This document shows positions 32,150-51,741 of a stretch of 64,000 bases of DNA, piece by piece. The notes under the pieces were generated by a model. That model was given only the letters and a program-made list of their open reading frames with translations, was not told where the DNA came from and searched no databases. The position numbers and the translations under genes are program-made. Within the stretch, counting starts at the first letter, position 1. Each line of letters begins with the position of its first letter. Source of the DNA: Burkholderia sp. BCC0506 (GTDB lineage: Bacteria > Pseudomonadota > Gammaproteobacteria > Burkholderiales > Burkholderiaceae). The DNA lies in assembly GCF_902833145.1 (NCBI RefSeq), contig NZ_CADFEN010000008.1, positions 248,001 to 312,000 of the forward strand. The letters are read 5' to 3'.

Positions 32150-32210
32150 AGTGCCGGCGATGCCGACGCGAGATTCGGCGTGGCGTGACGGGTGCTGCAT
32201 CGGAAGCCTG

Positions 32211-32293
32211 TATTCGCATCTCATCGAAAGCGACACGAGCCGGTGTTGCTTTCGATTAGATGCGGATATGATTTTCGATTAGATCTGGATATG
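32211..32293. repeat. Left repeat cluster (three copies of the 22-bp repeat)
   Basis: Copy a (inverted, degenerate, 21 bases aligned) at 32211-32231, ending CTCATCGAAAGC. Copy b at 32249-32270, containing TTTCGATTAGATGCGGATA. Copy c at 32272-32293, containing TTTCGATTAGATCTGGATA. Copies b and c are one base apart in the same direction. Confidence 0.8.
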
Positions 32294-32394
32294 AGCCCGG
32301 AAACCCTTTGCTCACGGGGCTTTGCGAGGGATGGAATGCGCACGGAGCGCAACTGTGCAGCGATGGGTATGCTTGGCGCACGTTGAGAACGGAT

Positions 32395-32416
32395 TTTTTG
32401 ATTAGATGCAGATATG
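32395..32416 (+). repeat. Left repeat, fourth copy
   Basis: A 22-base copy containing TTTTGATTAGATGCAGATA, same direction as copies b and c, differing from the core at two positions. Confidence 0.75.
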
Positions 32417-32662
32417 GGACCAAAGAGTCCGGCCGAACCACCTTCGCAGGACGCGCACGAGGTATCCGCCATTCCGTTCGAGAGGATCGTTGAGAGGCGG
32501 ATTCCGAAGTTGCCAGATTGCGCGCGAGCAGCGCTGGTCTTCAGGCCGCCTCTTCTAGAGTCCTGGCGAACTAGGCGATGGACAAGATTGCGATGCAACG
32601 TGGGGCTCGTCCATGTCAGCTCATGAGCCCCTCGCCTCTCAAATGGTTGCGTATCGAAACCG

Positions 32663-33346
32663 TCACTTCGTGCTCAGATAGGCCTCTTCCATACGCCGAG
32701 CAGCGGCCGCCAACGGGTCGTCCATATCCTCCACGTCGTCCCATTGTGGTTGATTTGCCGGAGCCGGCTGTTTGTCCGAGGAGGGGAGGTAGATAGAGCG
32801 CTCGATCTCCGCGAATTCGCTGGCCCGAGATGCCCGTCCGTTCTGTTTCGCCTGCGTTCTTGTTACACCAACAACGCCGGCGTAGCTATTGCCCCGGCCT
32901 CTTTCGTACGAGTCGACTCGCTCTTGCTGCGTCGCCTTAATTTTTCCTGCAAACCGCGCGCGCCGTGGTTCGAGGTTGGCCTTTTCTTGCAGCGTTTCGT
33001 CACGGTTGGCGAGTTCCAATTTCTTCCAGCCGCCCGAGCCGAACCGACGTTTGTCCTCATCGAGCATCTCGATTTCGAAGACATTCTTATCTGGTCCTCG
33101 ACAAAGCAATGTCCAAGAATCCTGGACGGTTCGCTTGATTTCGACCTTTAACTGTCGCTTTACTGGCAGCTTCGCATGGTTTGAAGCAATTTCGATAAGC
33201 TCGGATGAAGTGTATTGAGCTCTCTCATACTTGATACGGCCCCTGATGCAAGGCACTTCCTTCCAGGGCAAGAAGGTGTCGAACACTTCCTCTGGCGTCC
33301 AGGACCTGGCTGCCTTTCCGCGCCGCAATCCTTGATAGTACCGGTG
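32663..33346 (-). pseudogene. 5'-truncated gene, probable C-terminal part of a Mu/TniA/TnsB-type transposase
   Basis: About 228 codons without a proper start: the frame is open to the right into the IS66 remnant, and the only start-like codon inside is a TTG at 33328. The best reading is HRYYQGLRRGKAARSWTPEE, then FLPWKEVPCIRGRIKYERAQYTSSELIEIA, resembling the Mu-transposase C-terminal beta-barrel (PF09299) of TnsB/TniA, including 'YTSSEL', followed by a charged Arg/Lys/Glu-rich tail as in TnsB. The DDE catalytic core is missing. No search was run, so family assignment is an inference; it could instead be an unrelated phage or island protein. Confidence 0.5.
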
Positions 33347-33536
33347 GATCGCCGGATCACTGCGTGCGGGTCAGCGCGCGGCCGCCATCATGAGCATGAT
33401 CCGCTCGGCACAACTGAACGGGCTCGGACCTCTCGCCTATCTGAAGGACGTGCTGACGCGCTTGCCGACCCACAAGGTCAACGACATCGACGCGCTGCTG
33501 CCGCATCGCAGGCAGCCACTCTCGGTCGCCGCGTAA
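33339..33536 (+). pseudogene. IS66-family transposase (TnpC) C-terminal remnant
   Basis: About 65 codons ending in TAA, preceded in frame by a TAG at 33336. The peptide YRWIAGSLRAGQRAAAIMSM, then IRSAQLNGLGPLAYLKDVLTRLP and IDALLPHR, is the characteristic end of IS66 TnpC (AGSLRAGxRAAAxMSLI...YLxDVLxRLP...LLPHRW). All upstream TnpC, TnpA and TnpB sequence is missing. The junction with the transposase-like gene on the other strand lies at about 33339-33346. Confidence 0.85.
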
Positions 33537-33545
33537 ACTCGCTCG

Positions 33546-33571
33546 TCAAGATGGGTTGGCTGGCCGCTTAC
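33546..33571. repeat. Right terminal inverted repeat of the IS66 remnant
   Basis: The sequence ends GGCCGCTTAC ten bases or so after the TnpC stop region; reversed, it starts GTAAGCGGCC, matching the GTAAGCG start typical of IS66-family ends. The left end is absent. Confidence 0.6.
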
Positions 33572-33679
33572 CAAACTACTTTGGGAAACGCAGAAATGCT
33601 GCTGAAGTGACTGCATTAACTTAAACCAACAGGCCTCAACGATTCCCGGTGCGGTTCACACCGACGCGCTATCGAAGCA

Positions 33680-34837
33680 TCACATCTTTTCGATGACGCC
33701 GAGTGATGTAATCTTCTGCGACTTAACCTGATAGACCGAAACCGCCGCGTACTTCTGATCGCCCTTGCTGTCGAATTCAATCCTCCCGGTAACGCCGGTG
33801 TAGTCAATCGAATGGAGCGCATCAATGACCTTCAACGGGTCGAGGGAACCAGCCTTCCGTATGGCTTCACCAACCACCATCACGCTGTCGTACGTGTACG
33901 GCCCGAAGTACTGCGGCGGCTGGTGGAAGCGCGCCTCGTACTTTTCAACGAACTCCTTGGAGCCCGGGAGCTGGTCAAGAGGCGCGCCGGTTTGAGTACA
34001 GTATTCCCCCTCCGCGGCGGAGCCCGCGACTCGAACCCAGTTCTCCGTGCAAATCCCGTCGCCGCCAACGAATCGCACGCGCGTCATACCGAGCGTCTTC
34101 ATCTGCTTCACGAAAGGCGATGCGATGGCATCAGTGCTGGCCAACACGATGGCGTCCGGTTGACTTGACTTTAGCGAGGTAAGGATTGCCCGGAAGTCTA
34201 CAGCTTTATCGTTCGTGAACTCCCGCGTCACCGCAATTCCGGACTCCCCGGCATCCTTCGCCACCTGGTCGCCCAAACCCTGACCATATGCGGTCCTGTC
34301 GTCCACCAATCCTATGCGCTTCGCCTTCAACTGGCGGCGGAGGAATTGAACCATTCCACGCGCTTGTGCGTTGTCGTCAGCGACGACACGGAAAGTGTTC
34401 TTTAGGCTTTGCGCCGTAAGCGCGGGATTTGATGCGCCGCTCGATATGAAGGGCATCCCGGCCTGGCTGTAAATGCGTGAGGCTGGAATCGCAACGCCCG
34501 AGTTGATGTGGCCCACGACGGCGACGACGTGGTCATCAACCAATCGTTGGGCGACAATCGTGCCAACTCGTGGGTCCGCCCCGTCGTCTGCAGCAACGAG
34601 TTCGAAGCGGACGCGCTTGCCGTTCAACATGATGTTCTTTGCGTTAAGCGCGTCAATCGCCAGTTCCCCGCTGTTCTGCACGTCTTTGCCCAAACTCGCC
34701 AGCTGACCGGTCGTTGGTCCTGCAACAGCAATCTTCGCTACCAAGTCATCGGCGTTTGAATCGGTTGATGAAAATGCCAGTACGGCGGCGATACAAGCAG
34801 CCGCAAGCGGAGTTTGAATCTGAGTGTAGTGAGACAT
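33680..34837 (-). CDS. Branched-chain/amide-type ABC transporter binding protein (LivK-like)
   Basis: 385 residues from ATG 34837 (MSHYTQIQTPLAAACIAAVLAF), with GGGAG nine bases upstream. A signal peptide ends near SNADD (residue 29). The Peripla_BP_6 family pattern is clear: KIAVAGPTTGQLASLGKDVQNSGELAIDALNA, VAVVGHINSGVAIPAS, FISSGASNPALT, NTFRVVADDNAQARGMVQFL and FGPYTYDSVMVVGEAI. No permease or ATPase genes are next to it, so it must use host-encoded Liv components or be an orphan. First of module A of the island from the left, same strand as its neighbours. Confidence 0.92.
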   Translation of the reverse strand: MSHYTQIQTPLAAACIAAVLAFSSTDSNADDLVAKIAVAGPTTGQLASLGKDVQNSGELAIDALNAKNIMLNGKRVRFELVAADDGADPRVGTIVAQRLVDDHVVAVVGHINSGVAIPASRIYSQAGMPFISSGASNPALTAQSLKNTFRVVADDNAQARGMVQFLRRQLKAKRIGLVDDRTAYGQGLGDQVAKDAGESGIAVTREFTNDKAVDFRAILTSLKSSQPDAIVLASTDAIASPFVKQMKTLGMTRVRFVGGDGICTENWVRVAGSAAEGEYCTQTGAPLDQLPGSKEFVEKYEARFHQPPQYFGPYTYDSVMVVGEAIRKAGSLDPLKVIDALHSIDYTGVTGRIEFDSKGDQKYAAVSVYQVKSQKITSLGVIEKM

Positions 34838-35045
34838 GCTGTTTCTCCCAAAAGGTGACTTCATTCGCTCAGTGAATGCCACGTTCTGACATCGTTTGAT
34901 ATCCTAATTTAATACGTCGTGAATGCCGTCGACTTGAGTGTGCCGGCGAGTCACGAAAAAAAGTGGGTATTACGTAAAAAGCATCATAGTTGAGTCAAAA
35001 AACAAATTCTCGCAAATGAGAAAAATTTATTGCGAACCCGACTGC

Positions 35046-36278
35046 TTAGAAGCGTTCCGCTCGAAACGGCGCGAGGTCGACCGCCGGGCGAACGCCTGTA
35101 ATCGACTCGGCTATCAAGCGCCCAGTGATGGGCCCAAGCGTCAAGCCGTGGTGAGCATGTCCAAATGCGAACCAGATGTTTTTGTGGCGCGGGGCGGGCC
35201 CAATGACGGGCATCATGTCCGGCGTGCATGGGCGGCGGCCAAGCCACGGCTCGGCGTCGACTCGTTCTCCGAGGGGAAAAACTTCGCGGGCGACAGGTTC
35301 CACGGCGTCCAGTTGAACGGGTGTTTTCGGGGAGTCTCGAAAGCCAAGTTCCACGCCCGTCGTCAGTCGAATTCCTCTAACCATGGGCGTAATCATGTAG
35401 CCAATCTCGGCATCGAGGACTGGCTGATTCAGCGTCGCGCCGGGCCTGCTTGCGTAATGCATGTGATAGCCACGCTTCACTTCCAGTGGCAGTGAATAGC
35501 CAAGCCTTGTGGTCAGGTCGCCAGACCATGGACCCATGGCAATGACAGTCGCCTCGGCCTCTGCTAGCCCTGATTCGGTGTGCACGCGCCAGCCGCCTTC
35601 GAGGGTGGAAGCGTCGCCAACAAGCACGGTGCCACCGAGACGTTCAAGGAGCTTGGCGTACGCAGCGACGAGACCAGCCGGGTCACTGACTGAATCAGAC
35701 GACGTGTAGCGTACAGCGGCACGCAGCACAGAACTCAACGACGGCTCGGTCTGATGCAGAGCATCTGCGTCCAGCGCTTCAAACTCGACTCCGTATTCTT
35801 CTCTCCATCGTGACGCCTCCGCAACGGCATCTTCGAAAGCTTTGCCTGTACGAAAAGCCTTTACCCATCCGTTCTTTCTGAGTAGAGGCTGTGCTCCAGC
35901 TGCTTCAATAAGCTCGCGGTGTTCCGAGACGGAGTGCTCGATCAGCGTGGAATAGGCTCTCGCAATCTGTGCGTGACGGTCAGCGCGCGAGTTCTGCCAA
36001 TACTTCAGCAGAAACGGCGCCAAACTTGGCATCGCCATCGGGTGATAGCGAACATCCGTCGCGCGATTGCCCGCGTAGTGGACAAGGGACGCAAAGTCGC
36101 GAGGGAATGCGTACGGATACACGCCTTCACGCTGGATGAGCCCAGCATTTCCGAGCGAGGTTTCATTACCGGGCGCTTTGCGGTCGATGAGCGCCACTTT
36201 AAGGCCTCGGCGCTGCAGTTGCAAAGCGACTGACGTGCCGACGATACCACCGCCGAGGACCATTGCGTCAAACTTCAT
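35046..36278 (-). CDS. FAD-dependent D-amino-acid dehydrogenase/oxidase (DadA-like)
   Basis: 410 residues from ATG 36278 (MKFDAMVLGGGIVGTSVALQLQRRG), AAGGA upstream. The dinucleotide fold GGGIVG is at about 9-14, followed by the acidic strand end LIDRK and NAGLIQREGVYPYAFPRD, as in DadA; the C-terminal FAD signature is GHAHHGLTLGPITGRLIAE (about 378-395). It oxidises a D-amino acid to the 2-oxo (imino) acid. The gene order DadA-like - RidA - amidase suggests hydrolysis of an amide to a D-amino acid, oxidation, and imine clean-up. Confidence 0.9.
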   Translation of the reverse strand: MKFDAMVLGGGIVGTSVALQLQRRGLKVALIDRKAPGNETSLGNAGLIQREGVYPYAFPRDFASLVHYAGNRATDVRYHPMAMPSLAPFLLKYWQNSRADRHAQIARAYSTLIEHSVSEHRELIEAAGAQPLLRKNGWVKAFRTGKAFEDAVAEASRWREEYGVEFEALDADALHQTEPSLSSVLRAAVRYTSSDSVSDPAGLVAAYAKLLERLGGTVLVGDASTLEGGWRVHTESGLAEAEATVIAMGPWSGDLTTRLGYSLPLEVKRGYHMHYASRPGATLNQPVLDAEIGYMITPMVRGIRLTTGVELGFRDSPKTPVQLDAVEPVAREVFPLGERVDAEPWLGRRPCTPDMMPVIGPAPRHKNIWFAFGHAHHGLTLGPITGRLIAESITGVRPAVDLAPFRAERF

Positions 36279-36333
36279 CTCGATATTCCTTTCATCAGGC
36301 ACGATGCGAAGGCTTGATTAGCGAGAAGGCCAG

Positions 36334-36687
36334 TCAAGCGAGCGCCGTAACGCCAATCTCAACGTCCAGGCCCGGTTTCATCAAAATCGACGTAACGCAT
36401 GCACGCGTTGGAGCGTGCCCTTCGGGCACCCACGCGTCCCAGACACCGTTGAATTGGTCAAAGTGCTGCGGGTCGCTCAACCACACGTTGGCGGTCAGTA
36501 AGCGAGTCTTGTCGATTCCGGCTGAGGCCAGCAGCTTGTCGATGCGAGCGAGGATTTCTGTCGCCTGCACGTCGATAGGGGCACCAGCCGTCTCGGGAAC
36601 CTGCCCCGAAAGATAAACAATACCGTTTGCCACCACGACCTGGCTCATGCGAGCGTTGGTCTGCAAGCGTTCGATTTGATTACTCAT
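36334..36687 (-). CDS. RidA/YjgF-family protein (imine/enamine deaminase)
   Basis: 117 residues, the normal Rid length. It hydrolyses reactive imines and enamines released by amino-acid oxidases. Family marks: SQVVVANGIVYLSGQVPE, ILARIDKLLASAGIDKTRLLTANVWLSD, and TRACVTSILMKPGLDVEIGVTAL, in which the Arg of TRACV is the catalytic carboxylate-binding Arg. It lies 55 bases after... the amidase side and next to the DadA-like oxidase whose imine products it would handle. Confidence 0.93.
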   Translation of the reverse strand: MSNQIERLQTNARMSQVVVANGIVYLSGQVPETAGAPIDVQATEILARIDKLLASAGIDKTRLLTANVWLSDPQHFDQFNGVWDAWVPEGHAPTRACVTSILMKPGLDVEIGVTALA

Positions 36688-36689
36688 GT

Positions 36690-38222
36690 TTACACCATTG
36701 ATAAGCCGGATGCATCGCGCCGTCCGGATGGGTTAAAAATCGGAGGTGAAGTAACGATAGACTTCAGTGCTGGATTTGCTTCGCGTAGAAGCAAGATGTT
36801 CGGGCGGGGACGGCACAGCGTTGACGAGCAGGCGAAGGCTTGTTCAAACGCGTGAGAAATCGCAAGGGTCTGCGAGTCGCCACGGAACGGGCCGACTATC
36901 TGCAAGCCGAACGGCATGCCCGCCCCATCCACGCCACACGGCAAGGAGAGTGCCGGATGGGTCGTGAGGGTAACGACATAGGTGAGCGCCAGCCACCGAT
37001 AGTAATTTTCCTGTGTTCTTCCTTCCACGGTAGACGCGTAGAGTTCCGTCCACGGAAACGGCGACACCGGCGTCGTGGGTGAGATAACAACGTCGTAACG
37101 GGAGAAGGCAAATTGAAAGCGCTGGAAGATTCGTGTCTGCTCGGCTTGCGCCCACGCAGAATCCGCAAGTGACATCTTCGCGCCCATCTCGTAGTTCGCG
37201 CGAGTGTTCGGACCCAAGGCGCTCGGGTCGCGTGCGTATGCGGCGTGCAGACCGGCAACGAAGCTTTCGGCGCGGACGACGTCAAAGCACCGATGCGCAT
37301 CGCCGAGATGGAAGTCAACTGGCTCGCACGTACGAACGATGCCCTTAATGGAGGCGACTCGCGACCGGAACGTTTCTCGGATTGTTTCGTCTACGTCACA
37401 ACAGCCAAAGTCTTCTGTGTAGCCGACGCGAAGTCGCGAGAGGTCGATGTTGGCAATCCGGCCAAGCCCGAGGGCATCGACTGAATAACTCAATGGGTCA
37501 TCGGCCGACTCGCCGGCAGTTGCGGCGAGTTGCAAAGCGGCCTCGGCGACAGTTCGCCCCATCGGTCCGACAACTGAAATGGGGGTCCAGCCCAGTAGCC
37601 GGCGCGAATTGGGTATAAGCCCTGGTGACGGGCGGAACCCGACCACCCCACATTTTGACGCCGGAATGCGTAAAGAACCACCGGTATCAGACCCTGTGCA
37701 CACCGGCAACATGTCGCATGCGAGCGCGGCGGCCGAACCGCCTGAGCTTCCACCTGCGTTTAGCGCCGGGTTGAACGGGTTGCCCGTTGCGCCCCATACT
37801 GGATTTCGTGTGTTCGCGCCGGCACCGAGTTCCGGCACGTTTGTCTTCGCGAGCAAGATTGCTCCCTGTTTGCGCAACCGCTCGACCAGAACGACATCGC
37901 GTGACGGCACATTGCCACGTGACATCGGAGAACCGTAGGTGGTAAGTAAGCCGGCTGTGTCTTCAAGGTCTTTCACGCCCATCGGCAGGCCGTGAAGGAG
38001 CCCCAGTTCCCTTCCGTCCATTACGTGCTGTTCGGCGACCTTCGCCTCGCTTCGCGCGGTGTCGAAGCAGGTCGCTGTGACAGCGTTCACCGCCGGATTG
38101 AGTGCTTCGATGCGGTCGATACAAGCATCGACCAAGTCGACCGGAGAAATCTGCTTGGTGCCAATCAATCTGCGCAGCTCTTCTGCAGACTTGGTCACCA
38201 ATTCTTCTTGAGCGCGCGTCAT
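36690..38222 (-). CDS. Amidase (amidase signature family)
   Basis: 510 residues from the second ATG, 38222, which is six bases after AGGA; the first ATG would touch the ribosome site. The Ser-cisSer-Lys triad is visible: Lys84 (MGVKDLEDTAG), the cis-Ser in GGSSGGSAAALA (about 157-168), and the nucleophile Ser183 in SDTGGSLRIPAS. The C-terminal LSLPCGVDGAGMPFGLQIVGPFRGD is standard. Cytoplasmic (no signal). Two bases separate it from the RidA gene, so they share a message. Likely releases an amino acid from an amide. Confidence 0.93.
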   Translation of the reverse strand: MTRAQEELVTKSAEELRRLIGTKQISPVDLVDACIDRIEALNPAVNAVTATCFDTARSEAKVAEQHVMDGRELGLLHGLPMGVKDLEDTAGLLTTYGSPMSRGNVPSRDVVLVERLRKQGAILLAKTNVPELGAGANTRNPVWGATGNPFNPALNAGGSSGGSAAALACDMLPVCTGSDTGGSLRIPASKCGVVGFRPSPGLIPNSRRLLGWTPISVVGPMGRTVAEAALQLAATAGESADDPLSYSVDALGLGRIANIDLSRLRVGYTEDFGCCDVDETIRETFRSRVASIKGIVRTCEPVDFHLGDAHRCFDVVRAESFVAGLHAAYARDPSALGPNTRANYEMGAKMSLADSAWAQAEQTRIFQRFQFAFSRYDVVISPTTPVSPFPWTELYASTVEGRTQENYYRWLALTYVVTLTTHPALSLPCGVDGAGMPFGLQIVGPFRGDSQTLAISHAFEQAFACSSTLCRPRPNILLLREANPALKSIVTSPPIFNPSGRRDASGLSMV

Positions 38223-38242
38223 TGTCATTCCTGAGTTCAGCG

Positions 38243-39529
38243 TTAGTTGATGGCTTCGCCTGTTCGGTCACGCAGCCAGATGACCGGGACCAACGAGATC
38301 GCGCAAGCAGCCGCGACATACCACGCCGGAGCCAAAGCATTACCGGTACGCTCGACAATCCAGCTTGCGATGAGCGGGGAAAATCCGCCAAAGAACGAAG
38401 CACTCACGACGTATGTCAGTGCAATTCCAGTCGCTCTAACTTCGCGCGGAAACAGCTCCGGAATCATCACGAGAACCGGAACAATCTGGCCGGCGACGAA
38501 AATAGCGAGAAATGCGGAGACGATGCACAGGAGGAGGATTGAAGGATGTGCACTCAGCAGCGAGAACGCGGGATAAACCGATGCAAGAAGGATGACTCGC
38601 GAGGTAACGAGCACTCGTTTACGCGTGAACCGGTCTGCCAGCTTGCCTGCTATGGGAGCAGCGATAAAGAGCGTCATTGAACTGACCACGCCCGAGATGA
38701 CCGATGCGGTCGGCGATAGGTGCAACGTTCGAACTGCGTAATTCGGAAGGAAAAATGCCGTGATGTACACGGACACCGAGCCACCAAGTTCTGTGAATGT
38801 ACCCAGGATGGTCAGCTTAAGGTGGGTCGTGAGGGCAGCTTTCAGCGCACCATCCTTCTTTCCGTCATTAGCTGGTGCGTGGCTAAGCGTTTCCTCGAGC
38901 CGGCGTCGAATCAGCATCCCGACCGGCGCAGCCAAGATGCCAAGGAGAAACGGAAGGCGCCATCCCCAATCGTCCACGACCTCTTTAGAGAAGCTGACAT
39001 TCACCAGCGTGGCGACCACTGCACCGAGTGCAAGACCGAGCGCAGTCGCTGCGAAGTTCCAACTTGCGAAGAATGCGCGCGTGTTGTCCGTCGCGTATTC
39101 AACAAGCAGGGTCGTACCAGGGCCGAATTCGCCACCTGCGGCAAAGCCTTGAATTAGACGAGCCGCAAGTACAACCAATGGCGCGAGGACCCCTGCCACT
39201 GCATACGGCGGAGCAGACGCGATGAGCGCGCAACTCAGCGCCATCAACATGATGGTCAGCACCATGGCCTTTTTTCGCCCGACGCGGTCAGCATAGGCAC
39301 CGATGACGACGCCACCGAGGGGGCGAACGACGAAGCCAACGCCGAAGACCCCGATTGAAAGAAGAAATTGATTGACCGGAGACGATGAGGGAAAAAAAAG
39401 CTTCCCGATTTGGATGGCGAAGAAGCTATAGATGGTGAAGTCGTAGTACTCAAGCGCTGTTCCAAGGGTAGTCGCAGCAACAACCTGAGTCTTTGATAAG
39501 CCAGCCTTTTCGAGTGCAAGCGATGACAC
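38243..39529 (-). CDS. MFS transporter, metabolite:H+ symporter (MHS) family
   Basis: 428 residues from GTG 39529 (VSSLALEKAGLSKTQVV): AAGGAG is seven bases upstream, while the ATG 27 bases earlier has none and would run over the regulator region. The family start TTLGTALEYYDFTIYSFFAIQIGKLFFP, motif A GAYADRVGRKKAM and AARLIQGFAAGGEFGPGTTLLVEY are those of ProP/ShiA/KgtP-like symporters. It lies 20 bases before the amidase gene and is divergent from the XRE-cupin regulator, whose palindrome it shares. Presumably imports the module A substrate. Confidence 0.93.
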   Translation of the reverse strand: MSSLALEKAGLSKTQVVAATTLGTALEYYDFTIYSFFAIQIGKLFFPSSSPVNQFLLSIGVFGVGFVVRPLGGVVIGAYADRVGRKKAMVLTIMLMALSCALIASAPPYAVAGVLAPLVVLAARLIQGFAAGGEFGPGTTLLVEYATDNTRAFFASWNFAATALGLALGAVVATLVNVSFSKEVVDDWGWRLPFLLGILAAPVGMLIRRRLEETLSHAPANDGKKDGALKAALTTHLKLTILGTFTELGGSVSVYITAFFLPNYAVRTLHLSPTASVISGVVSSMTLFIAAPIAGKLADRFTRKRVLVTSRVILLASVYPAFSLLSAHPSILLLCIVSAFLAIFVAGQIVPVLVMIPELFPREVRATGIALTYVVSASFFGGFSPLIASWIVERTGNALAPAWYVAAACAISLVPVIWLRDRTGEAIN

Positions 39530-39571
39530 GATGCTGCTCCTTCGCGTGATGGACATTGACGTGAGTTATCA

Positions 39572-39599
39572 TATACGAGAAAAAATTAATTCTCGTATA
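39572..39599. promoter_or_regulatory. 28-bp palindromic operator of the XRE-cupin regulator
   Basis: Perfect ten-base arms TATACGAGAA and TTCTCGTATA around an eight-base AT spacer (39582-39589), centred in the 97-base gap between the divergent MHS carrier and regulator starts. Confidence 0.75.
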
Positions 39600-39626
39600 C
39601 GACAAAACCCGAATTCAAGAGACCTC

Positions 39627-40286
39627 ATGCGAAAGTCCGGAGCACAACGCGAGCAACTGAACCCCCCGTCAGAGACTGACGGAAGCTCGCCTCACATCGA
39701 CCACAAGGTGGTCGGCGCACAATTGCGTCAGGCGCGCAAGTCGCGCCACTTGACATTGATGCAGTTGTCCGAGCTTTCGGGCATTGCTGTCTCGACGATT
39801 TCCAAGGCGGAGCGTGGCGACATCGCGCTCACCTACGACAAGTTCGTTGCGCTGGCCCGCGCGCTCAACGTCGACTTCGACACAATCTTCGGGCGCGCGC
39901 CCGGCCGAGCATCGGGACCGATTGAACCCACTCTCACGCGGTCCGGAAAGCAGCTGATTTACGACACGCCGAATTACGAGTACGGAATGATTGCCAACGA
40001 CCTTGTGGGAAAGCGCATGGTGCCGATGCGGGCGCACATCCGTGCGCGAGCGCTCGACGACTTTCCTGACTTCATCCGCCACAGCGGTGAAGAGTTCGTC
40101 TTCCTCTTGCAGGGGGAACTGGAACTTCATTTTGAGAACGGGTCTGTCTTCCGGCTGGAGCGCGGCGACAGTCTGTATTTCGACAGTGCGCAGGGGCATG
40201 TCTATATCAGCACCGGAGCAGAAGACGCGGAGGTTCTTGTGTGCTGCGTCGACACCGACGAGCATCGACCACCACAGACGCTTTGA
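39627..40286 (+). CDS. XRE-family HTH / cupin-domain regulator
   Basis: 219 residues from ATG 39627 (MRKSGAQREQLNPPSE); the frame is open upstream to 39531 but that part would cross the operator and has no ribosome site. HTH of the XRE type at about 28-85 (VGAQLRQARKSRHLTLMQLSELSGIAVSTISKAERG), then a RmlC-like cupin at about 145-215 (FPDFIRHSGEEFVFLLQGELELHFENGSVFRLERGDSLYFDSAQGHVY). Such regulators (PuuR-like) sense small metabolites of amine/amino-acid catabolism. Divergent from the MHS - amidase - RidA - DadA unit, its probable target. Confidence 0.9.
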   Translation: MRKSGAQREQLNPPSETDGSSPHIDHKVVGAQLRQARKSRHLTLMQLSELSGIAVSTISKAERGDIALTYDKFVALARALNVDFDTIFGRAPGRASGPIEPTLTRSGKQLIYDTPNYEYGMIANDLVGKRMVPMRAHIRARALDDFPDFIRHSGEEFVFLLQGELELHFENGSVFRLERGDSLYFDSAQGHVYISTGAEDAEVLVCCVDTDEHRPPQTL

Positions 40287-40381
40287 TTGGGACATCGCAG
40301 GCTCCAGCATGCGTCGGTACACCAAGGCAACCGACGAACGAAGAAAAAATTGCGACAGCGCCCTCGAATCTGACTCGCTAT

Positions 40382-43691: not shown

Positions 43692-43751
43692 CGCTCCTCT
43701 CCTTTTGTCTCAGAATTTCGTTCCACGAATTGCGTCAATCGCCGATCGGTG

Positions 43752-45434: not shown

Positions 45435-45505
45435 GTTCAAGTCTCCTAATGTCATTATTGTGGTCGGACCGGCAAAGGTAGTTCACCCCGCGGCGGGGCA
45501 CATCG

Positions 45506-46441
45506 TCAGTCTCGACGACATGCGCGTCGAAGCGCCTGGCTAGCGTCGTCGAATGCTTTTCGAACTTCAGCTGCCAGATCGAAGAAGCCGCAAAAGCCGT
45601 GAATTAAGCTGGCGTACTCGTGATATTCAACTGGGACGTCAGCGTTGGTCAGCCGATCGGCATACATTCTGGCTTCGTCACGGAACATGTCATTGCCACC
45701 CACCGCAATGAAGGCGGGTGGCGAGCGGCGGAGGTCCTTACGAAGGAGGATCGAGATACGTGGGTCAGTCCGCTGACTGTCCAACTCGAGGTAATTCTGC
45801 ATGCAATTGCGGTGTAGCCCGATGGTGATCAGGTGGCCTTCGGCGAATTCGCTCCTTGACGCGGTATCGATGTCGACTTGGGTCATCGGGTAGAACAGCA
45901 GTTGCAGCGCACACTGTTTGCTTGGCTCGTCGCGCAATTCGGAAGCGACGAAGGCCGCCATATTCGCACCTGCAGACTCGCCGCCGACCGCGATCCGCTT
46001 GGGATCGACGCCTAGTTGTCGAGCATGGTCGAAGAGCCAAGACGTGCTGGCTAACGCGTCATCGTGCGCCGCTGGGAAACGATGCTCGGGAGCGAGGCGA
46101 TAAGCGACCAACAACACCTTGATGCCCGCACCCAATGCAAGACGTCGTCCGCTCTGATCGTGCGTATCAAGCCCGCCGACCATCCAGCCACCGCCATGAA
46201 AGTAGACGAGGCACGGCAGATCGTCCGTGTCGGCCGCGCTGCGGGCTGGTGACAACAAGCGGGCGTCCAGCCTGGTATCGCCGATTTCGATTCGAAAGTC
46301 TCTAGATTCGACTCCCGGGATCGGCGTCGGAGCAGATCGGAGGGCACGGAAGAACTGCCGCTGCTCATTGGCGTCCATGCCTTCGAGCGCGGGGCCAGCA
46401 TGGTATTTCTGAAGCATGGCGGCAAGATTCTGGTCGAGCAT
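45506..46441 (-). CDS. Alpha/beta hydrolase, hormone-sensitive-lipase (HSL) family esterase
   Basis: 311 residues. Oxyanion motif HGGG (about 82-85), nucleophile elbow GESAG (154-158, Ser156), catalytic Asp in VGGNDMFRDEARMYADRL and His in SLIHGFCGFF, the full HSL triad. No signal peptide; AAAGG before the ATG. It probably hydrolyses an ester or lactone in module B. The gene lies between the long flavoprotein gene and an SDR fragment, on the same strand. Confidence 0.93.
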   Translation of the reverse strand: MLDQNLAAMLQKYHAGPALEGMDANEQRQFFRALRSAPTPIPGVESRDFRIEIGDTRLDARLLSPARSAADTDDLPCLVYFHGGGWMVGGLDTHDQSGRRLALGAGIKVLLVAYRLAPEHRFPAAHDDALASTSWLFDHARQLGVDPKRIAVGGESAGANMAAFVASELRDEPSKQCALQLLFYPMTQVDIDTASRSEFAEGHLITIGLHRNCMQNYLELDSQRTDPRISILLRKDLRRSPPAFIAVGGNDMFRDEARMYADRLTNADVPVEYHEYASLIHGFCGFFDLAAEVRKAFDDASQALRRACRRD

Positions 46442-46492
46442 AACTGGGCCTTTCTGGTTCGCGCAGTCACCGGCGCGGATGGCTTAGGGTTT

Positions 46493-46625: not shown

Positions 46626-46727
46626 AGGATGTAGCGGTCTTTGACCTTGGTCGCTTCGGACGGCCGCGCTTGCTTCCATTTCTTTGCGAAGGTGCGGCGC
46701 GTCGGCGTACCGGTGATTTCGCTGCGG

Positions 46728-47642
46728 TCAGGCGATCTGGGTTAAGAGGGTGCCAAGGCCGGCGACCTCGATCCGGATTTTGTCGCCCGTTGATATGAAA
46801 CGGCCGTTTTCGGCTCCCACACCCGCTGGAGTTCCGGTGATCAGGACGTCGCCAGGAAAGAGGTCGAATAGGCTGCTGAGGAACGCGATCTGCTCGGCGA
46901 TAGAATAGATGTGGTTCTTCGTGTTCGAGTCTTGCCGCAATTCGTCGTTGACCCAGGTCTTGATGGCAAGATCCTCGGGATCGGCGATATATTCCGCCGG
47001 TGTCAAGAACGGGCCGACAGGGCAAGATTTCGGGAAGACCTTCGCGCCCATCCAGTCGGCCCGAAATGGAGAGCTCACGTCCTCCTGTCGCCGAATCAGT
47101 CGATCGCGTGCCGACAGATCGTTGGCGCAACTGTAGCCGGCGACATAAGAAAGGGCGTCCGCTTCGCGGACGTTACGCGCGCGCCGACCGATAATGACTG
47201 CGAGTTCCGCCTCGAAATCCAGCTTCTGCACGCCACCGGGATAATCGACGTACTCGCCGTGTCCCGCCAAGCCGGTGCGGCCCGGAATCATGAAGAAGAA
47301 CGGCGGAGCGCCGCTAGCGCGGGGATCATTCACGGTGATATTCATCACTTTCGCCATCGCTTCGACGTGATCGCGATAATTCGCCCCGCAGGCGTAAATT
47401 GTAGCGGCGTTCAGGGTGGGCGCGACAAGACGCGTCACGCCGAGGTCGATCGCCTCCGGCATTTCGTCGCCGTCCGCGATCCGGCGGGCCAGTGCCTTCA
47501 TTCGTTCGTGCTGCACGTCAACGTCGGTCAGGTAGGCTTCCAGGGTGCAATCCGGCAGGTGGTAGGCCTGATCGGCAACCACGATTCCGAGTTCCGGCGA
47601 TCCAGACGAGGGCAGAAATTGAAAGAGCTTGTAAGATGCCAC
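46728..47642 (-). CDS. Fumarylacetoacetate hydrolase (FAH)-family protein
   Basis: 304 residues. The family core is well kept: LVAPTLNAATIYACGANYRDHVEAM, then PPFFFMIPGR, KLDFEAELAVIIGRRARNV (metal-binding Glu residues), YSCANDLSARD (metal Asp), GAKVFPKSCPVGPFLTP, and DVLITGTPAGVG. FAH-family enzymes cleave C-C bonds of 2,4-dioxo acids, decarboxylate or hydrate ring-fission products. It starts 15 bases after the amidohydrolase gene and is in the same operon. Its presence with the flavoproteins suggests ring cleavage in module B. Confidence 0.93.
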   Translation of the reverse strand: MASYKLFQFLPSSGSPELGIVVADQAYHLPDCTLEAYLTDVDVQHERMKALARRIADGDEMPEAIDLGVTRLVAPTLNAATIYACGANYRDHVEAMAKVMNITVNDPRASGAPPFFFMIPGRTGLAGHGEYVDYPGGVQKLDFEAELAVIIGRRARNVREADALSYVAGYSCANDLSARDRLIRRQEDVSSPFRADWMGAKVFPKSCPVGPFLTPAEYIADPEDLAIKTWVNDELRQDSNTKNHIYSIAEQIAFLSSLFDLFPGDVLITGTPAGVGAENGRFISTGDKIRIEVAGLGTLLTQIA

Positions 47643-47657
47643 GAAATAACTCCCGAA

Positions 47658-48926
47658 CTAGCGCGCCGTAGAATCAGCACTGGAGTGCTGTGCCTGAAAT
47701 TCCTTGTGGAACTTGCCGTCCTTCATCACCGCGAGAATGTTGCTCTTATCCTGAAGCAGGGTGACATCCTGCGTGACATCGCCTTTCACTAGCACAATGT
47801 CGGCGAGATAACCCGGCTTAATCATTCCAAGCTCATCGCCCATGTCCATCAACTGGCCGCCCAACTTCGTTGCGGCGACGAGCGCTTCAATGGGAGTGAA
47901 ACCCATCTGCTTTACAAAAATGTCGAGATCGCGGGCGTTCCAGCCGTGCGGATTGAAGGGGAAGCCATAGTCGCCGAAGGGCAGGACTCGGATCCCGCGC
48001 CGGCGCATTTCGGGGATCAGTTGCCGATGGCGCTCGATCACGTTCCGTGCGTCGGCCTTCTGCTCGGTGAGATCCATCCCAGGCGGTGGCGTGAAGTCCA
48101 GCAGGGCCTGAAGCACGCCGATCGCCGGTGCCACGAAGATATCGTCCTTGCGCTCCTCAAGCAGATCCAGCGCTTCTTCGTCCGCGTGGGTGCAATGGTA
48201 AAGAACGCGGAAGCCGTGGCGCGCGCCGAGCTTGACGGCTTCGGCAGCATGCGCGTGTCCGTTCAGCCAAATTCCAGATTCGACCGCTTGCTCATGCGCG
48301 GCTTGAAGCTCCTCGTCCCGATATTGCAACTCGAACGATGCACCGGGGCGCAGCTGGCTTTCGCCCGACAGCAGGAACTTCACGGACTTGGCACCGAACT
48401 CCGCGCACTCCTTGATGAACGCCCGTACCTCTTCCGGGCCGCCAAGTTGATGCTCGGACTTGCCGGGATTGAAGGTGTTATCTTCCCCCGCGGGTGGTTC
48501 CTTTTCGATTGACGAGGGAATGAAGCGCGGACCGGGCAGGCCACCGCTTTCAATTTGATCGGCAAGATAGATTTCGAGCCGCTGGCTCATCGCGCCGGCC
48601 GAATAGGCGCTAGTAATGCCATGGTCGAGCAGTATCCGCGCGTTGCGCGCAGCGGTCAGCGCGAGCGCTTCGGGCGGCATCGCCATTTCCCTGACAGGAC
48701 GTTCGACCGAGCTGGGCCACGTAAGGTGAGCGTGCGCTTCCACCATCCCGGGCATCAGGGTCGCGCCCTCGCCATCGATCACATGCGCATCGGCCTGATT
48801 GCCTGCGCCGTTCATCGAGCCGCCAGGCGTGACGGAAACGATGCGGTTCTCCTTGACGGACACCTCGCCGGCGAACGGCGGTGATCCCGTGCCATCAAAG
48901 ATTCGGACGTTTTTAAATATGATCAT
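47658..48926 (-). CDS. Metal-dependent amidohydrolase (imidazolonepropionase/Xaa-Pro dipeptidase-like)
   Basis: 422 residues from ATG 48926 (MIIFKNVRIFDGTGSPPFAG), GGA upstream; further upstream codons lack a ribosome site. Amidohydrolase_1 fold: VEAHAHLTW gives the HxH metal pair (His65, His67), KSVKFLLSGE carries the carboxylated-Lys candidate, WLNGHAHAAEAVKLGARHGFRVLYHCTHADEE holds two further His ligands, and FGDYGFPFNPHGWN the final Asp. The C-terminal PGYLADIVLVKGDVTQDVTLLQDKSNILAVMKDGK is typical. First gene of the module B operon, divergent from the TetR gene at 49339. Confidence 0.9.
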   Translation of the reverse strand: MIIFKNVRIFDGTGSPPFAGEVSVKENRIVSVTPGGSMNGAGNQADAHVIDGEGATLMPGMVEAHAHLTWPSSVERPVREMAMPPEALALTAARNARILLDHGITSAYSAGAMSQRLEIYLADQIESGGLPGPRFIPSSIEKEPPAGEDNTFNPGKSEHQLGGPEEVRAFIKECAEFGAKSVKFLLSGESQLRPGASFELQYRDEELQAAHEQAVESGIWLNGHAHAAEAVKLGARHGFRVLYHCTHADEEALDLLEERKDDIFVAPAIGVLQALLDFTPPPGMDLTEQKADARNVIERHRQLIPEMRRRGIRVLPFGDYGFPFNPHGWNARDLDIFVKQMGFTPIEALVAATKLGGQLMDMGDELGMIKPGYLADIVLVKGDVTQDVTLLQDKSNILAVMKDGKFHKEFQAQHSSADSTAR

Positions 48927-49338
48927 AATGTTTCCATAAGTAATACTAAACGTTTGAAAGCGATTATTAGGGTGCCCACACCCGTTATCTAACAAGTCAT
49001 ACGTCCGATGCCATACTTGGCGGAGTCGCTCGCGCGACTCACAAGAGGCGTTCGAACAGTTGCGTATCTCCGACGGTCGCAATCATTGTCGAACAACCGT
49101 CAAAGTCGTCGCCCGTTCGCTTTTTCGTCGGCCGGTTCACGATCGGCCTACCACCTGCGGCAGTCGGACGGCCGTCACATGAGGCGGAGCCGGAGCCTGT
49201 GCTGAGTGTGCGAAGCAGTGCATCAAGTGCGCGCGGAACTTTGACAATCGTCAAAGTTTTGGCGTTTGGTGTCAAGGTCGCGTCACTTGGGATTTTCCCT
49301 ACCGATGGAAGAGCGGATGACAGCCTTAAAATTCGAAA
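48927..49338. other. Divergent promoter region of module B
   Basis: 412 bases between the amidohydrolase and TetR starts, with no supported gene. It must hold both promoters. The only clear structure is the 22-bp palindrome at 49237-49258; it is 81 bases before the TetR start and about 310 from the amidohydrolase start. Confidence 0.6.
49237..49258. promoter_or_regulatory. 22-bp TetR operator
   Basis: Perfect palindrome AACTTTGAC-N4-GTCAAAGTT in the divergent region of module B. Its length and symmetry fit a TetR dimer site. Confidence 0.7.
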
Positions 49339-50037
49339 ATGGCAACTCACATCAAAAAGCCCGCACCACGTGATGGGGCGGCGTTTCGGCAGTCGATCCG
49401 GCGGACGGCACTCGACGTCTTTTCAACTTACGGCTTCGACGCCACGAGCATGCGCCAGCTTGCGGCCGCTGCAGGCATGGACGTAGGCCATCTCTCGTAC
49501 TACTACCCTGCGAAGGAGGCCCTGTGGCGTGATGTGCTGACGGAGTGCTCCCGCGACTATGAGCAGCACGTGGAGTCCGCGCTAGCAGCGGCGGTCGATT
49601 CGAAGACGGCAACCGAACGTGCCGCTATCGTGCTGCCCAGCCTCCTCGGCTTCATGGCCGACAATCCGAAGCTCTCGCGATTGATGATGCAGGAGTTCTC
49701 CATTAATTCGGCCCGCCACGACTGGGTCGTGGACACCATGGCGAAGCGGGTGTTCCTGCGGTTACAACCATTATTCGACGGCCTCAGGTCCGAAGGCGTC
49801 CTCGTCGATATCGATCCGACAGCCGCCTACTTTGCGCTAATCGCCGGAGCAGTTGCATTTTTCGCTTCAACGGACGAGTTCGGCCGGATATCGGGCTACG
49901 GCGTTCCAGATGCCGAACAGAAGAAGGAGGTGATTGCCTTTTTGTGTCGGGGTTTTCTCGCCACGACGGGGACGCCGTCAGGCAAGCGAGAGTCAGTCGA
50001 GAAAGCATCGCGCGGACAGAAGAAGCAGTCGACCTAG
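49339..50037 (+). CDS. TetR-family transcriptional regulator of module B
   Basis: 232 residues. HTH at about 36-60 (ATSMRQLAAAAGMDVGHLSYYYPAKEALWRDVL), an unusual DVGHLSYYYPAKE recognition helix but clearly TetR. The effector domain is the TetR_C type with ADNPKLSRLMMQEFSINSARHDWVVD. The C-terminus is very basic (GKRESVEKASRGQKKQST). It stands divergent from the amidohydrolase - FAH - esterase - flavoprotein unit and has a palindrome before it, so is the likely repressor of module B. Confidence 0.92.
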   Translation: MATHIKKPAPRDGAAFRQSIRRTALDVFSTYGFDATSMRQLAAAAGMDVGHLSYYYPAKEALWRDVLTECSRDYEQHVESALAAAVDSKTATERAAIVLPSLLGFMADNPKLSRLMMQEFSINSARHDWVVDTMAKRVFLRLQPLFDGLRSEGVLVDIDPTAAYFALIAGAVAFFASTDEFGRISGYGVPDAEQKKEVIAFLCRGFLATTGTPSGKRESVEKASRGQKKQST

Positions 50038-50523
50038 GCCCAAACCGCGCATCTCGGATGTGCGATTGGCGACCGTCAGGAAGGCCGGCGCAGACCGAAG
50101 GCGCCGGTTGCAAAGCCAACGGGATCGCTCTATTTCGTTACTTCAATTGGCTGTTCCAGTGTATTCCCTTAGCGGGGTAATCGTCGGGATCGTGCAAAAA
50201 TGGCGATTTGATCTTGAAAGCGCTTATCAATCAATTGGTTACATCGTCGTAACGTGAACGAAGGCCGTCGGAGCGCGAAGCCTTGCTGCATGCGCCTCTG
50301 CGAGTGGGTGCCACCAGATTTGGCTCGATCCGGACGATTACGCCTGGCGGCCCGAACACAACTTTAGTTGTGTGAGCGCGAAGAGCGGAAGAAGAGCGCA
50401 AGCGGCATGACCAGTGATGGACAGATAACGCACAGTTTCGGCGGCATTGCTGACCGTATCGGGCCTGTTCTAAGCGGACCTGCTCGCGGCAGTGGTCGGT
50501 GGTCGGGCTTTCCGCCTGACCGC
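50038..50523. other. Non-coding or decayed stretch at the right of module B
   Basis: 486 bases in which I see no convincing gene on either strand. An 18-bp palindrome, ACACAACT-TT-AGTTGTGT, is at 50356-50373 and could be a regulator site or part of a lost terminator. The GC content falls locally. Confidence 0.5.
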
Positions 50524-50760
50524 TCACTGCACCGCGTGCTCCCTCATGACGGCGTCGCGATACACACGAGCGACGAGCGTCCCGGTCCTCTCGATATGCC
50601 GCTCGACTGTGCCTTCCTCAAGGCAGTGCAACACATCGAGCGTACTGTCGCCGCAGACATTGCAGTCTCGCCGCGCCAGTTCGAGTTCCTTCGTCATTCC
50701 TTTCCTGGTCAACTCGGCAGAGAGCCACTCGAACGCGGTTGCGCCGTCCGTCGGTCGCAT
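50524..50760 (-). CDS. Hypothetical 78-residue protein, possibly the displaced tail of the HEAGH gene
   Basis: Reads MRPTDGATAFEWLSAELTRK, then GMTKELELARRDCNVCGDST and a C-terminus ending REHAVQ. The frame is open for some 20 codons upstream of this ATG and overlaps the end of the HEAGH gene in another frame. The composition looks genuinely coding (amphipathic helices, a CNVCGD pair of cysteines). Either a small coupled gene or the true C-terminus of the upstream gene after a frameshift near 50780. Not recognised. Confidence 0.45.
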   Translation of the reverse strand: MRPTDGATAFEWLSAELTRKGMTKELELARRDCNVCGDSTLDVLHCLEEGTVERHIERTGTLVARVYRDAVMREHAVQ

Positions 50761-51167
50761 GTAGCGGGGCAGTGCCCGCCCATGAGCGCGAGGTCGGAGG
50801 CCGATGCCTCTCCAAAGGAAATTCTGCAAAACAGGGGATCTGCCATAGCGCCAGTATCATCTGTCTCGCCGCTCAGGATTTCCTCGGCCAACATGCCGGC
50901 CATGCCGACGAGCATCTTCCAGTTCGCAGGTAGCTCGGGAGCGGCAAACCCATGGTTCAGCGCCACCTTGCGCATCACCTCAGGACAGGTGCGAGGACGA
51001 AACTGGCCCAGCCATGAGCTCTCGTCTGGATTGCCGCTCTCGTTTTTCCACACAACTGCGTCGCCAGCGCCGCCGAAGCGTTCGTAAAGCATCTTGTGGC
51101 CCGCTTCGTGGTACGCGGTGTTTCGGAGCTCTCTGGCAGCTATCTGCTCTTCCGAAAAATCGATCAT
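50709..51167 (-). CDS. Small HEAGH zincin-like protein (M41/FtsH-peptidase-like), perhaps frameshifted
   Basis: 152 residues from ATG 51167 (MIDFSEEQIAARELRNTAYHEAGHKMLYERFGG). HEAGH at 20-24 is the HExxH zinc motif, and WKMLVGMAGMLAEEILSGE (about 83-101) matches the downstream helix of FtsH-type peptidases, which supplies the third acidic ligand. There is no ATPase domain, so it is a free-standing peptidase-like domain of the sort found on mobile islands. The last 20 or so residues (TCDRRTAQPRSSGSLPS) look like out-of-frame sequence, whereas the next frame over reads naturally. No clear ribosome site. Function unknown. Confidence 0.5.
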   Translation of the reverse strand: MIDFSEEQIAARELRNTAYHEAGHKMLYERFGGAGDAVVWKNESGNPDESSWLGQFRPRTCPEVMRKVALNHGFAAPELPANWKMLVGMAGMLAEEILSGETDDTGAMADPLFCRISFGEASASDLALMGGHCPATCDRRTAQPRSSGSLPS

Positions 51168-51741
51168 GTTCGTTGGACGTTGTCGATGCCGTTGCGAGTC
51201 CCGCCGGTCGGCGGTCGCACAGGCGCGCGTTGCCTGCAAATGAGTGTAGGTTCGCCGAAGCGGCATGATTTGCCCAAAGTCGAGCAAATCGGCTTTGCCA
51301 CCTTGTTCTCGCATCGGCGAGACCCGACAGCGGTTACGCCGATTTCCAGTGTCGTTCTCCCGCCAGCCGTGCGGACCGCTGACGACGCGGCGTCCGGAAG
51401 AGCCGGTTCGATCTCCCATTGGATGGCCTATTGACTTGCGCGTAGAAATGCGCGGGGGCTTCTCGGTCAAGGCAAAAAGCCGTTTTCGATTAGATACGGA
51501 TACGCCATGTACCACGGGCGTACCGGGCCCGCACCGGATGCCGGTATCCGCATCTAATCGAAAGTCGTATCCATATCTAATCGAAAGCTACAGAGCCGGA
51601 CCGAAGCTCCGTACTAACCCTGATTAAAAACACTTATCGCGGTGAAAAATTCCGCATCTTATTGAACCGATATCGGCTGGATATAGTGGCTCGCTTTCCC
51701 GCACGCACCACCGGCGTGCGCAAAACGGCAGGAGCCTCTCG
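51168..51741. other. Right edge of the island: non-coding, repeat-bearing
   Basis: 574 bases with no supported gene. The 51483-51587 part holds three copies of the 22-bp repeat; beyond about 51592 the sequence is the AT-rich promoter region of the host-like M20 gene (poly-A tracts at 51626-51655). Confidence 0.6.
51483..51587. repeat. Right repeat cluster (three copies of the 22-bp repeat)
   Basis: Copy e at 51483-51504 (plus direction, TTTTCGATTAGATACGGATA). Copies f and g, reversed, at 51543-51564 and 51566-51587, each ending ATCTAATCGAAAG and separated by one base, mirroring the one-base gap of the left pair. Confidence 0.8.

What the first reader, a model, noticed from the sequence alone, without database searches (positions are those of the whole stretch)
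32209..51592. A 19 kb cargo island bounded by clusters of 22-bp repeats, with a transposase-tail remnant: a decayed Tn7/Tn5053/Mu-like element
Seen: seven copies of a 22-bp repeat (core TTTCGATTAGATNNGGATA), four at the left edge and three at the right, absent elsewhere in the window by eye. Left pair b/c and right pair f/g each have a one-base gap and face opposite ways. Established: Tn7- and Tn5053-type transposons carry several ~20-22-bp transposase-binding sites per end, with ends of TGT...ACA and 5-bp target duplications. Here a TGTA/TACA border pair has AAGCC and GAGCC flanks (4 of 5 equal). A gene resembling the C-terminus of TnsB/TniA lies inside the left edge, truncated by IS66. Inference: a nonautonomous, cargo-bearing element whose transposition genes were lost; its family may be undescribed.
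Basis: partly seen in the sequence, partly recalled or inferred. Interest (0 to 1): 0.82.

Follow-up and report, generated by a model that had tools for sequence, protein, structure and literature searches.

The report
Decayed Tn7-like transposon with catabolic cargo
A 19-kb block of metabolic genes in a Burkholderia chromosome is a site-specifically inserted, now crippled relative of the transposon Tn7, and it belongs to a little-recognised group whose ATPase helper protein seems to have lost its ATPase motifs.

Summary
The repeats are real: all seven copies (up to 2 mismatches) in the 7.3-Mb genome lie at this island. The element runs 32244-51592, not from 32209. It is flanked by GAGCCGG on both sides, and a close relative (G323) has the unoccupied site with one GAGCCGG. 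The leftmost repeat belongs to an older relic end outside the element, present in G323 too. Related elements share the end layout (three sites in 7 of 8 right and 5 of 7 left ends). Two (G110, G011) carry a tnsC-tnsD-tniQ-tnsA-tnsB set; the window protein is the last 221 aa of that TnsB (93% to G011), without its DDE domain. The TnsB profile matches Tn7 TnsB, E 1.8e-17. Right ends sit 21-23 bp from a conserved motif upstream of an M20 amidohydrolase gene (6 of 6); 13 of 62 genus loci carry such an end there. So it is a decayed, site-specific Tn7-like element, not Tn5053 or Mu. Unexpectedly, 22 of 26 TnsC relatives lack the Walker-A lysine and 25 of 26 the Walker-B DE pair, under purifying selection in three pairs measured.

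The parts
32187..32235 (-). relic right end (one 22-bp site plus flank, terminus ACA at 32233-32235) of an older element; outside the present element
   Evidence: aligns to the B site and inner flank of right ends by eye; the same relic in G323 scores E 6.7e-7 with the right-end model, model positions 29-76
32237..32243 (.). left copy of target repeat GAGCCGG
   Evidence: empty site of G323 has one copy
32244..32414 (.). left end: terminus TGTTGC, sites at 32250, 32273 and 32396, same orientation
   Evidence: same spacing in G110, G011, G155, G387
32663..33349 (-). tnsB remnant, last 221 aa; catalytic DDE domain absent
   Evidence: 93% identical to the tail of G011 TnsB, 58% to G110
33354..33536 (+). 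IS66 transposase C-terminal fragment that abuts the tnsB remnant
   Evidence: Pfam PF13817, E 3.3e-16
33680..34882 (-). cargo: periplasmic binding protein
   Evidence: Pfam Peripla_BP_6, E 5e-62
35046..36302 (-). cargo: DadA-like FAD amino-acid dehydrogenase/oxidase
   Evidence: NCBIfam, below curated cut-offs
36334..36687 (-). cargo: RidA family protein
   Evidence: NCBIfam, below cut-off
36690..38228 (-). cargo: amidase
   Evidence: Pfam Amidase, E 1.6e-94
38243..39556 (-). cargo: MFS metabolite/H+ symporter-like
   Evidence: TIGR00883, E 2.7e-106, below cut-off
39531..40286 (+). cargo: HTH-cupin regulator
   Evidence: Pfam HTH_3, Cupin_2
40557..42089 (-). cargo: OprB-type porin
   Evidence: Pfam OprB, E 1.8e-29
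42294..43691 (-). cargo: flavocytochrome c-like FAD dehydrogenase
   Evidence: NCBIfam, below cut-offs
43752..45455 (-). cargo: ketosteroid dehydrogenase-like FAD protein
   Evidence: NCBIfam, below cut-offs
45506..46441 (-). cargo: alpha/beta hydrolase
   Evidence: Pfam Abhydrolase_3, E 6.5e-68
46728..47642 (-). cargo: fumarylacetoacetate hydrolase family
   Evidence: Pfam FAA_hydrolase, E 2e-60
47658..49082 (-). cargo: amidohydrolase
   Evidence: Pfam Amidohydro_1, E 1.7e-22
49339..50037 (+). cargo: TetR regulator
   Evidence: Pfam TetR_N, E 6.4e-12
50521..51325 (.). DNA shared, in pieces, with the interiors of the G011 and G110 elements
   Evidence: blastn pieces of 78-93% identity
51484..51592 (.). 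right end: sites at 51568 and 51545 (-), inverted site at 51484 (+), terminus ACA at 51592
   Evidence: same layout in 7 of 8 right ends read
51593..51599 (.). right copy of target repeat GAGCCGG
51615..51627 (+). conserved motif TAACCCTGATTAA, candidate target-recognition site, upstream of the M20 amidohydrolase gene at 51742-52932
   Evidence: 21-23 bp from the terminus in 6 of 6 three-site right ends at this site; motif found with up to 4 mismatches in 56 of 62 genus loci

Best explanation
The island is a non-autonomous, decayed member of a divergent Tn7-like group. An ancestor with TnsA+TnsB (cut-and-paste transposase), TnsC (adaptor) and TnsD/TniQ (target selector) inserted at a fixed attachment site upstream of an M20 amidohydrolase gene, right end toward that gene, and duplicated the target. 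The 22-bp repeats are TnsB-binding sites arranged asymmetrically in the two ends. Afterwards, or in the donor, internal change removed the tns genes except the last 221 codons of tnsB, which now abut an IS66 fragment; a catabolic gene cluster is the cargo. Shown: ends, empty site, target repeat, shared attachment site, homology of the remnant to a full-length TnsB, relatives with a full tns set. Inferred: that TnsB binds the repeats, that TnsD/TniQ reads the motif near TAACCCTGATTAA, cut-and-paste, and that the window copy can no longer move by itself.
For: Repeats confined to this island in the whole genome. Same end layout in relatives. One-copy GAGCCGG empty site in G323. Direct repeats of 4-7 bp at the termini of 5 of 6 elements measured, against 1 of 30 mismatched left/right pairs and a simulated chance of 0.6%; a seventh element, G377b, has no repeat directly at both termini. 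Remnant 93% to G011 TnsB. Gene sets in G110 and G011. TnsB profile to Tn7 TnsB 7pik E 1.8e-17; TnsC profile to Tn7 TnsC E 2.3e-14; TnsD Pfam E 6.6e-15 in the own-genome copy. Right-end model hits upstream of M20 in 13 of 62 loci at E < 1e-5, 13 of 13 with the terminus toward M20; 6 of the 13 were in the model.
Against: [quoted passage not shown] G155 has 6, G110 4, G387 none, G377b none directly at the termini. TnsB of this group reaches no Pfam cut-off. The TnsB profile holds one distant row (G648) that alone matches 7pik at E 1.3e-8, so part of the profile score comes from it; G110 TnsB alone matches nothing. No binding or transposition was tested. The target motif is deduced from conservation, which could also be kept as a promoter of the M20 gene.
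Confidence: 0.92

Rival explanations
1. A Tn5053/Tn402- or Mu-type element (TniA or MuA transposase, no TnsA) as the first reader also offered.
For: These too have multiple ~20-bp sites, TGT...ACA ends and 5-bp repeats (recalled; PMC8649781 section 6, read, names Tn5053, Tn5090 and Tn552 with such arrays). Weak Pfam Mu-transpos_C matches in the G387 remnant and G199 TnsB (E 0.11 and 0.069, below cut-off).
Against: Relatives carry TnsA with E/D/K at the aligned positions (24 of 27 loci) and TnsD; the best solved-structure match of the transposase profile is Tn7 TnsB.
Confidence: 0.03
2. The repeats are host intergenic repeats and the island a chance neighbourhood.
For: None found.
Against: No other copy in the genome at up to 2 mismatches; empty site in G323.
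Confidence: 0.01
3. The element is not dead but a non-autonomous passenger that moves when a related Tns set is present in the cell, like G155, whose 29-kb element has three-site ends and no tns match.
For: Complete ends and exact target repeat in the window; G155 ends complete with no tns gene found by tblastn in the two stretches that span it; the remnant shows dN 0.034 and dS 0.29 against G011, so decay of tnsB is recent.
Against: The only other Tns set found in this genome (C2:324486) has a TnsB 33% identical to G110, and no clustered copy of such repeats was seen in the 60 kb read around it.
Confidence: 0.25
4. The true target duplication is 5 bp (GAGCC) and the two extra matching bases are filler kept at one junction, as the overhang left by TnsA cleavage could leave.
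For: G011 and G118 have exactly 5 bp; G377b has CCGGC on both sides with one extra base at the right junction (by eye).
Against: The two extra bases match in the window, one extra base matches in G155, and G110 has only 4 bp.
Confidence: 0.45

Closest known systems
Tn7 (Escherichia coli), TnsABCD pathway
   Same: TnsA+TnsB, TnsC, TnsD; ~22-bp sites, three in the left end; insertion on one side and at a fixed distance from a recognised sequence; one orientation (Tn7 traits: papers, and recall)
   Different: Tns order C-D-Q-A-B with tnsB ending at the left end; right end has an inverted third site; TnsC Walker motifs degenerate; target upstream of a gene instead of the end of glmS; target repeats of 4-7 bp
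Tn7-like element BGImetal of Burkholderia (PMC10702557; passages read)
   Same: Tn7-like cargo island in the same genus, with left and right TnsB-site arrays
   Different: tnsA-tnsB-tnsC-tniQ order per its Figure 9 legend and proteins found through Pfam models; the TnsB of the present group reaches no Pfam cut-off. Its sequences were not compared here
Type V-K CRISPR-associated transposons with TnsC lacking Walker motifs (PMC11406308 section 9, read)
   Same: natural TnsC without canonical Walker A and/or B
   Different: V-K elements are RNA-guided; here targeting looks protein-guided by TnsD/TniQ. CRISPR genes were not searched for; I noticed none in the frames read
Dual tniQ-tnsD Tn7-like loci (PMC10293859; section 8 and passages read)
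   Same: two TniQ/TnsD proteins beside tnsC
   Different: its main text has 0 occurrences of Burkholder- and of Walker A; whether its tree holds this clade I could not check

Membership tests
Tn7-like transposons | DDE transposase homologous to TnsB | tested here: met
   profile to 7pik E 1.8e-17; D346, D434, E470 in G110, DDE in 20 of 27 aligned TnsB; window remnant is its tail only
Tn7-like transposons | TnsA endonuclease | tested here: met
   Pfam TnsA_N E 3.4e-5 to 0.03 in three scanned, all below cut-off; E/D/K in 24 of 27 loci; no TnsA match in the window
Tn7-like transposons | TnsC adaptor of the AAA+ family | tested here: met
   profile to Tn7 TnsC E 2.3e-14
Tn7-like transposons | TnsC with intact ATPase motifs (usual, not universal) | tested here: not met
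   Walker-A Lys in 4 of 26, Walker-B DE in 1 of 26
Tn7-like transposons | TniQ/TnsD target selector | tested here: met
   TnsD E 6.6e-15 (own C2); TniQ E 2.7e-5 (G110, just below cut-off)
Tn7-like transposons | TGT...ACA termini with arrays of ~20-bp sites | tested here: met
   the decayed left end of G118 reads TAT
Tn7-like transposons | 5-bp target duplication | tested here: inconclusive
   window 7, G155 6, G011 5, G118 5, G110 4, G387 none; G377b 5 bp but offset by one base
Tn7-like transposons | fixed attachment site and orientation | tested here: met
   6 of 6 three-site right ends 21-23 bp from the motif, 13 of 13 ends face M20; G011 and G377b share a second site on the right-flank side
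Tn7-like transposons | TnsABCD-dependent transposition | not testable with these tools
   bench assay needed
Tn5053/Tn402 (tni) | no TnsA, TniABQR set | tested here: not met
   TnsA present in relatives

The most novel reading that the evidence does not exclude
A clade of Tn7-like transposons in Burkholderiales targets upstream regions of genes through TnsD/TniQ with a TnsC that has given up ATP binding and hydrolysis, so that the switch which licenses and immunises Tn7 works here without ATP; a loose stagger of 4-7 bp may be a by-product.
Probability: 0.4. Interest if true: 0.75.

Novelty: new variant of a known kind. Interest (0 to 1): 0.55.

Why it matters
TnsC is the AAA+ switch that couples target choice to transposition, and what its ATP cycle does is open: the review section read says that Walker mutants behave in opposite ways in different elements, and that some V-K TnsC lack the motifs. 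A Tn7-like group with TnsD/TniQ in which 22 of 26 TnsC read here lack the Walker-A lysine, while the protein stays under purifying selection in the pairs measured, gives natural material to test which steps need ATP. Its TnsB reaches no Pfam cut-off, so surveys built on such models may undercount it and the cargo it moves; the M20-upstream site looks like an insertion hotspot in Burkholderia.

Tried and rejected
Scanning viral contigs for TnsB relatives gave none; plasmids gave one record, Paraburkholderia sp. 22B1P. G110 TnsB alone had no match in Pfam, NCBIfam or the solved structures; the distant G648 TnsB alone matched Tn7 TnsB at E 1.3e-8, the six-row profile at 1.8e-17. Left-end sites of 22B1P, G104a and G208a were partly recognised (C-B-A spacing 122 and 24 in 22B1P), but no ends could be set for own C2, G199, G340a, G327 or G310, so their target repeats are untested. 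I considered that the TnsC motif loss marks dead copies: disfavoured by dN/dS of 0.16, 0.09 and 0.14 in three pairs (the fourth pair, G110-G011, is saturated and gives no ratio; one pair, G146-G160, lies outside the ten-member clade of G110). I considered an alignment slip: G377c and G575 show canonical Walker-A motifs in the same columns, but the Walker-A column of the other rows rests on that alignment alone, because the match to Tn7 TnsC starts after it. In one search the first DDE column is not D in 7 of 27 TnsB rows (E in 5, L in 1, V in 1; G377c is one of them); I did not check whether these are alignment slips or real. TnsA is not E/D/K in 3 of 27 (G131, G286, G002). No structure prediction was run: the tool's list of allowed sources does not name stretches taken with the fetch from genomes.
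Full report
What was checked. The pattern TTTCGATTAGATNNGGATA has seven matches in the window at up to 3 mismatches, none expected by chance, and the same seven are the only ones in the 7.29-Mb genome at up to 2 mismatches. At exactly 3 mismatches seven further single copies appear, all scattered. Four lie at the left and three at the right of the island, as reported.

Where the element ends. The right terminus GCTACA ends at 51592. The bases next to both termini are GAGCCGG (32237-32243, 51593-51599). In G323, whose LysR and M20-side stretches are 98% and 96% identical to the window's and lie 94 bp apart, the site reads with a single GAGCCGG and no element. The leftmost repeat, 32211-32229, is also present in G323; it matches the inner part of a right end and is best read as the relic of an older element that sat at the same site. 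The island is thus a 19,349-bp insertion.

Relatives. The pattern with up to 1 mismatch occurs in 19 of 398 genomes of the family sample. Elements with sites at both ends were found in G110 (58 kb), G011 (48 kb), G155 (29 kb), G387 (12.5 kb; its contig length and site sequences equal those of the B. cepacia LK29 record) and, decayed on the left, G118 (3.5 kb). G377 has a right end at the M20 site, whose left end was not found, and a second element (G377b) elsewhere. Of eight right ends read, seven have sites A and B 23 bp apart and an inverted site C 61 bp further in; the eighth (G377b) has A and B only. Of seven left ends read, five have A and B 23-24 bp apart and C 122-123 bp further in, all in one direction; G118 keeps one site and G377b two, 123 bp apart. 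Paraburkholderia sp. 22B1P keeps the left spacing (122 and 24) with a changed motif.

The gene set. G110 and G011 carry, reading toward the left end, tnsC, a TnsD relative, TniQ, tnsA and tnsB (G011 TniQ is open over the cut between two fetched stretches). The six-row TnsB profile matches Tn7 TnsB (7pik) at E 1.8e-17 over positions 154-723, with D346, D434 and E470 in G110; one distant row alone matches it at E 1.3e-8. The TnsD relative has no Pfam match in G110 or G011, but its homologue in the own genome matches Pfam TnsD at E 6.6e-15. TniQ (G110) scores E 2.7e-5, slightly below the cut-off. TnsA is weak in Pfam (E 3.4e-5 to 0.03, below cut-off). The window protein 32663-33349 equals the last 221 residues of G011 TnsB at 93%, beyond the catalytic residues; an IS66 tail abuts it. 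Against G011 this tail shows dN 0.034 and dS 0.29, so it was under selection until late. G387 keeps TnsB residues 508-779 only; in the stretches that span G155 and G377b no tns gene was found by tblastn.

The site. The M20-upstream region was read for 62 of 65 genus genomes (G134, G148 and G181 had only weaker, partial matches and were dropped). The motif TAACCCTGATTAA with up to 4 mismatches was found in 56 of these 62. A right-end model from seven three-site ends matches there in 13 of 62 at E < 1e-5; six of these built the model, seven did not (G323, G211, G205, G308, G298, G049, G399). All 13 have the terminus side toward M20. Termini of a similar kind can be seen by eye in G193, G199 and G372, but G193 and G199 score only E 0.27 and 0.31 and G372 is not found by the model. 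In the six three-site ends at this site the terminus lies 21, 22 or 23 bp from TAACCC, the start of a conserved stretch that runs to the M20 gene; in G110 the gene on the other side of the element is a divergent TetR gene (by eye). G011 and G377b share another site, upstream of a gene that looks by eye like a betaine-binding protein gene: 3.7 kb of right flank is 91% identical, but their left flanks do not match. G110 and G011, which use different sites, are 84% alike in TnsA, 58% in TnsB and 49% in TnsC, but about 40% in the TnsD relative and 33-40% in TniQ, in line with, though not proof of, different selectors.

Target repeats. Lengths are 7 (window), 6 (G155), 5 (G011), 5 (G118), 4 (G110) and none (G387); mismatched left/right pairs give one 4-bp match in 30, and simulation gives 0.6%. 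G377b, not in that test, has no repeat directly at both termini; CCGGC is present on both sides with one extra base on the right. A fixed 5-bp stagger with filler bases is a fair alternative.

TnsC. Relatives were gathered from the profile search (100 of 398 family genomes match at E <= 0.001, many of them presumably other DDE transposases). I fetched 18 further regions chosen from that list, most of them high in it; others, such as G238 and G292, were not fetched. With the nine elements already in hand, 27 TnsB, 27 TnsA and 26 TnsC were read (G361 and G104b have no TnsC in the stretch held, G327 has two). In 24 of 25 loci with all three genes, tnsC lies upstream of tnsA-tnsB; G377c has the order A-B-C. 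The Walker-A lysine is kept in 4 of 26 (G575, G377c, G208b, G341), and the DE of Walker B in 1 of 26 (G377c). G377c also scores Pfam AAA_22 at E 5e-21, whereas G110 TnsC has no Pfam match. In the ten-member TnsB clade that holds G110, G011 and the own-genome copy, 0 of 11 TnsC keep the lysine. dN/dS of TnsC is 0.16, 0.09 and 0.14 in three pairs of loci. The TnsC profile matches Tn7 TnsC at E 2.3e-14 and aligns its LGLLIVxRI-like stretch to the LGLLVIDEI of Tn7; Walker A lies outside that match.

Literature. The review PMC11406308 (section 9 read; [quoted passage not shown] PMC10293859 (section 8 and passages) describes dual tniQ-tnsD loci, PMC8649781 (sections 5 and 6 and passages) the end arrays, PMC10702557 (passages) a different Tn7-like island in Burkholderia. 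Of the other papers listed I saw titles and starts of abstracts only; none of these named this clade, its TnsC or the M20 site. Most subscription journals are not held.

Verdict. The element is a decayed Tn7-like transposon with a catabolic cargo, ordinary as a single island; the clade it opens is the interesting part.

Noticed in passing
G000:C2:318963-326810 (L090/L091): The same genome holds a second tnsC-tnsD-tniQ-tnsA-tnsB set with open frames, TnsB 33% identical to G110, with TnsC P-loop IPAGMSQQ; its ends were not found.
   Followed up: partly
L064:4417-9560: In G011, between tnsB and the left end, genes that look by eye like a type II CBASS defence set (JAB, E1, nucleotidyltransferase, SAVED/HNH); not tested by any family search.
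   Followed up: no
L064:9745-11517 and L072:12131-14233: A 590-700 aa protein without NCBIfam match (and without Pfam match for the G011 copy) lies near the left end in both G011 and G387 (59% identical), perhaps an accessory gene of the element.
   Followed up: partly
L089:16243-22388: A related tns set with the same left-end spacing on the 2.48-Mb replicon p22B1P1 of Paraburkholderia sp. 22B1P; no TniQ of the G110 kind was recognised there by tblastn.
   Followed up: partly
L244 (G377:C4:300000-313000): A Tn7-like set with A-B-C order and a canonical TnsC in a genome that also carries two right ends of the present group.
   Followed up: partly
L230:5638-10362: G327 carries two tnsC genes about 2 kb apart, both without the Walker-A lysine.
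   Followed up: no
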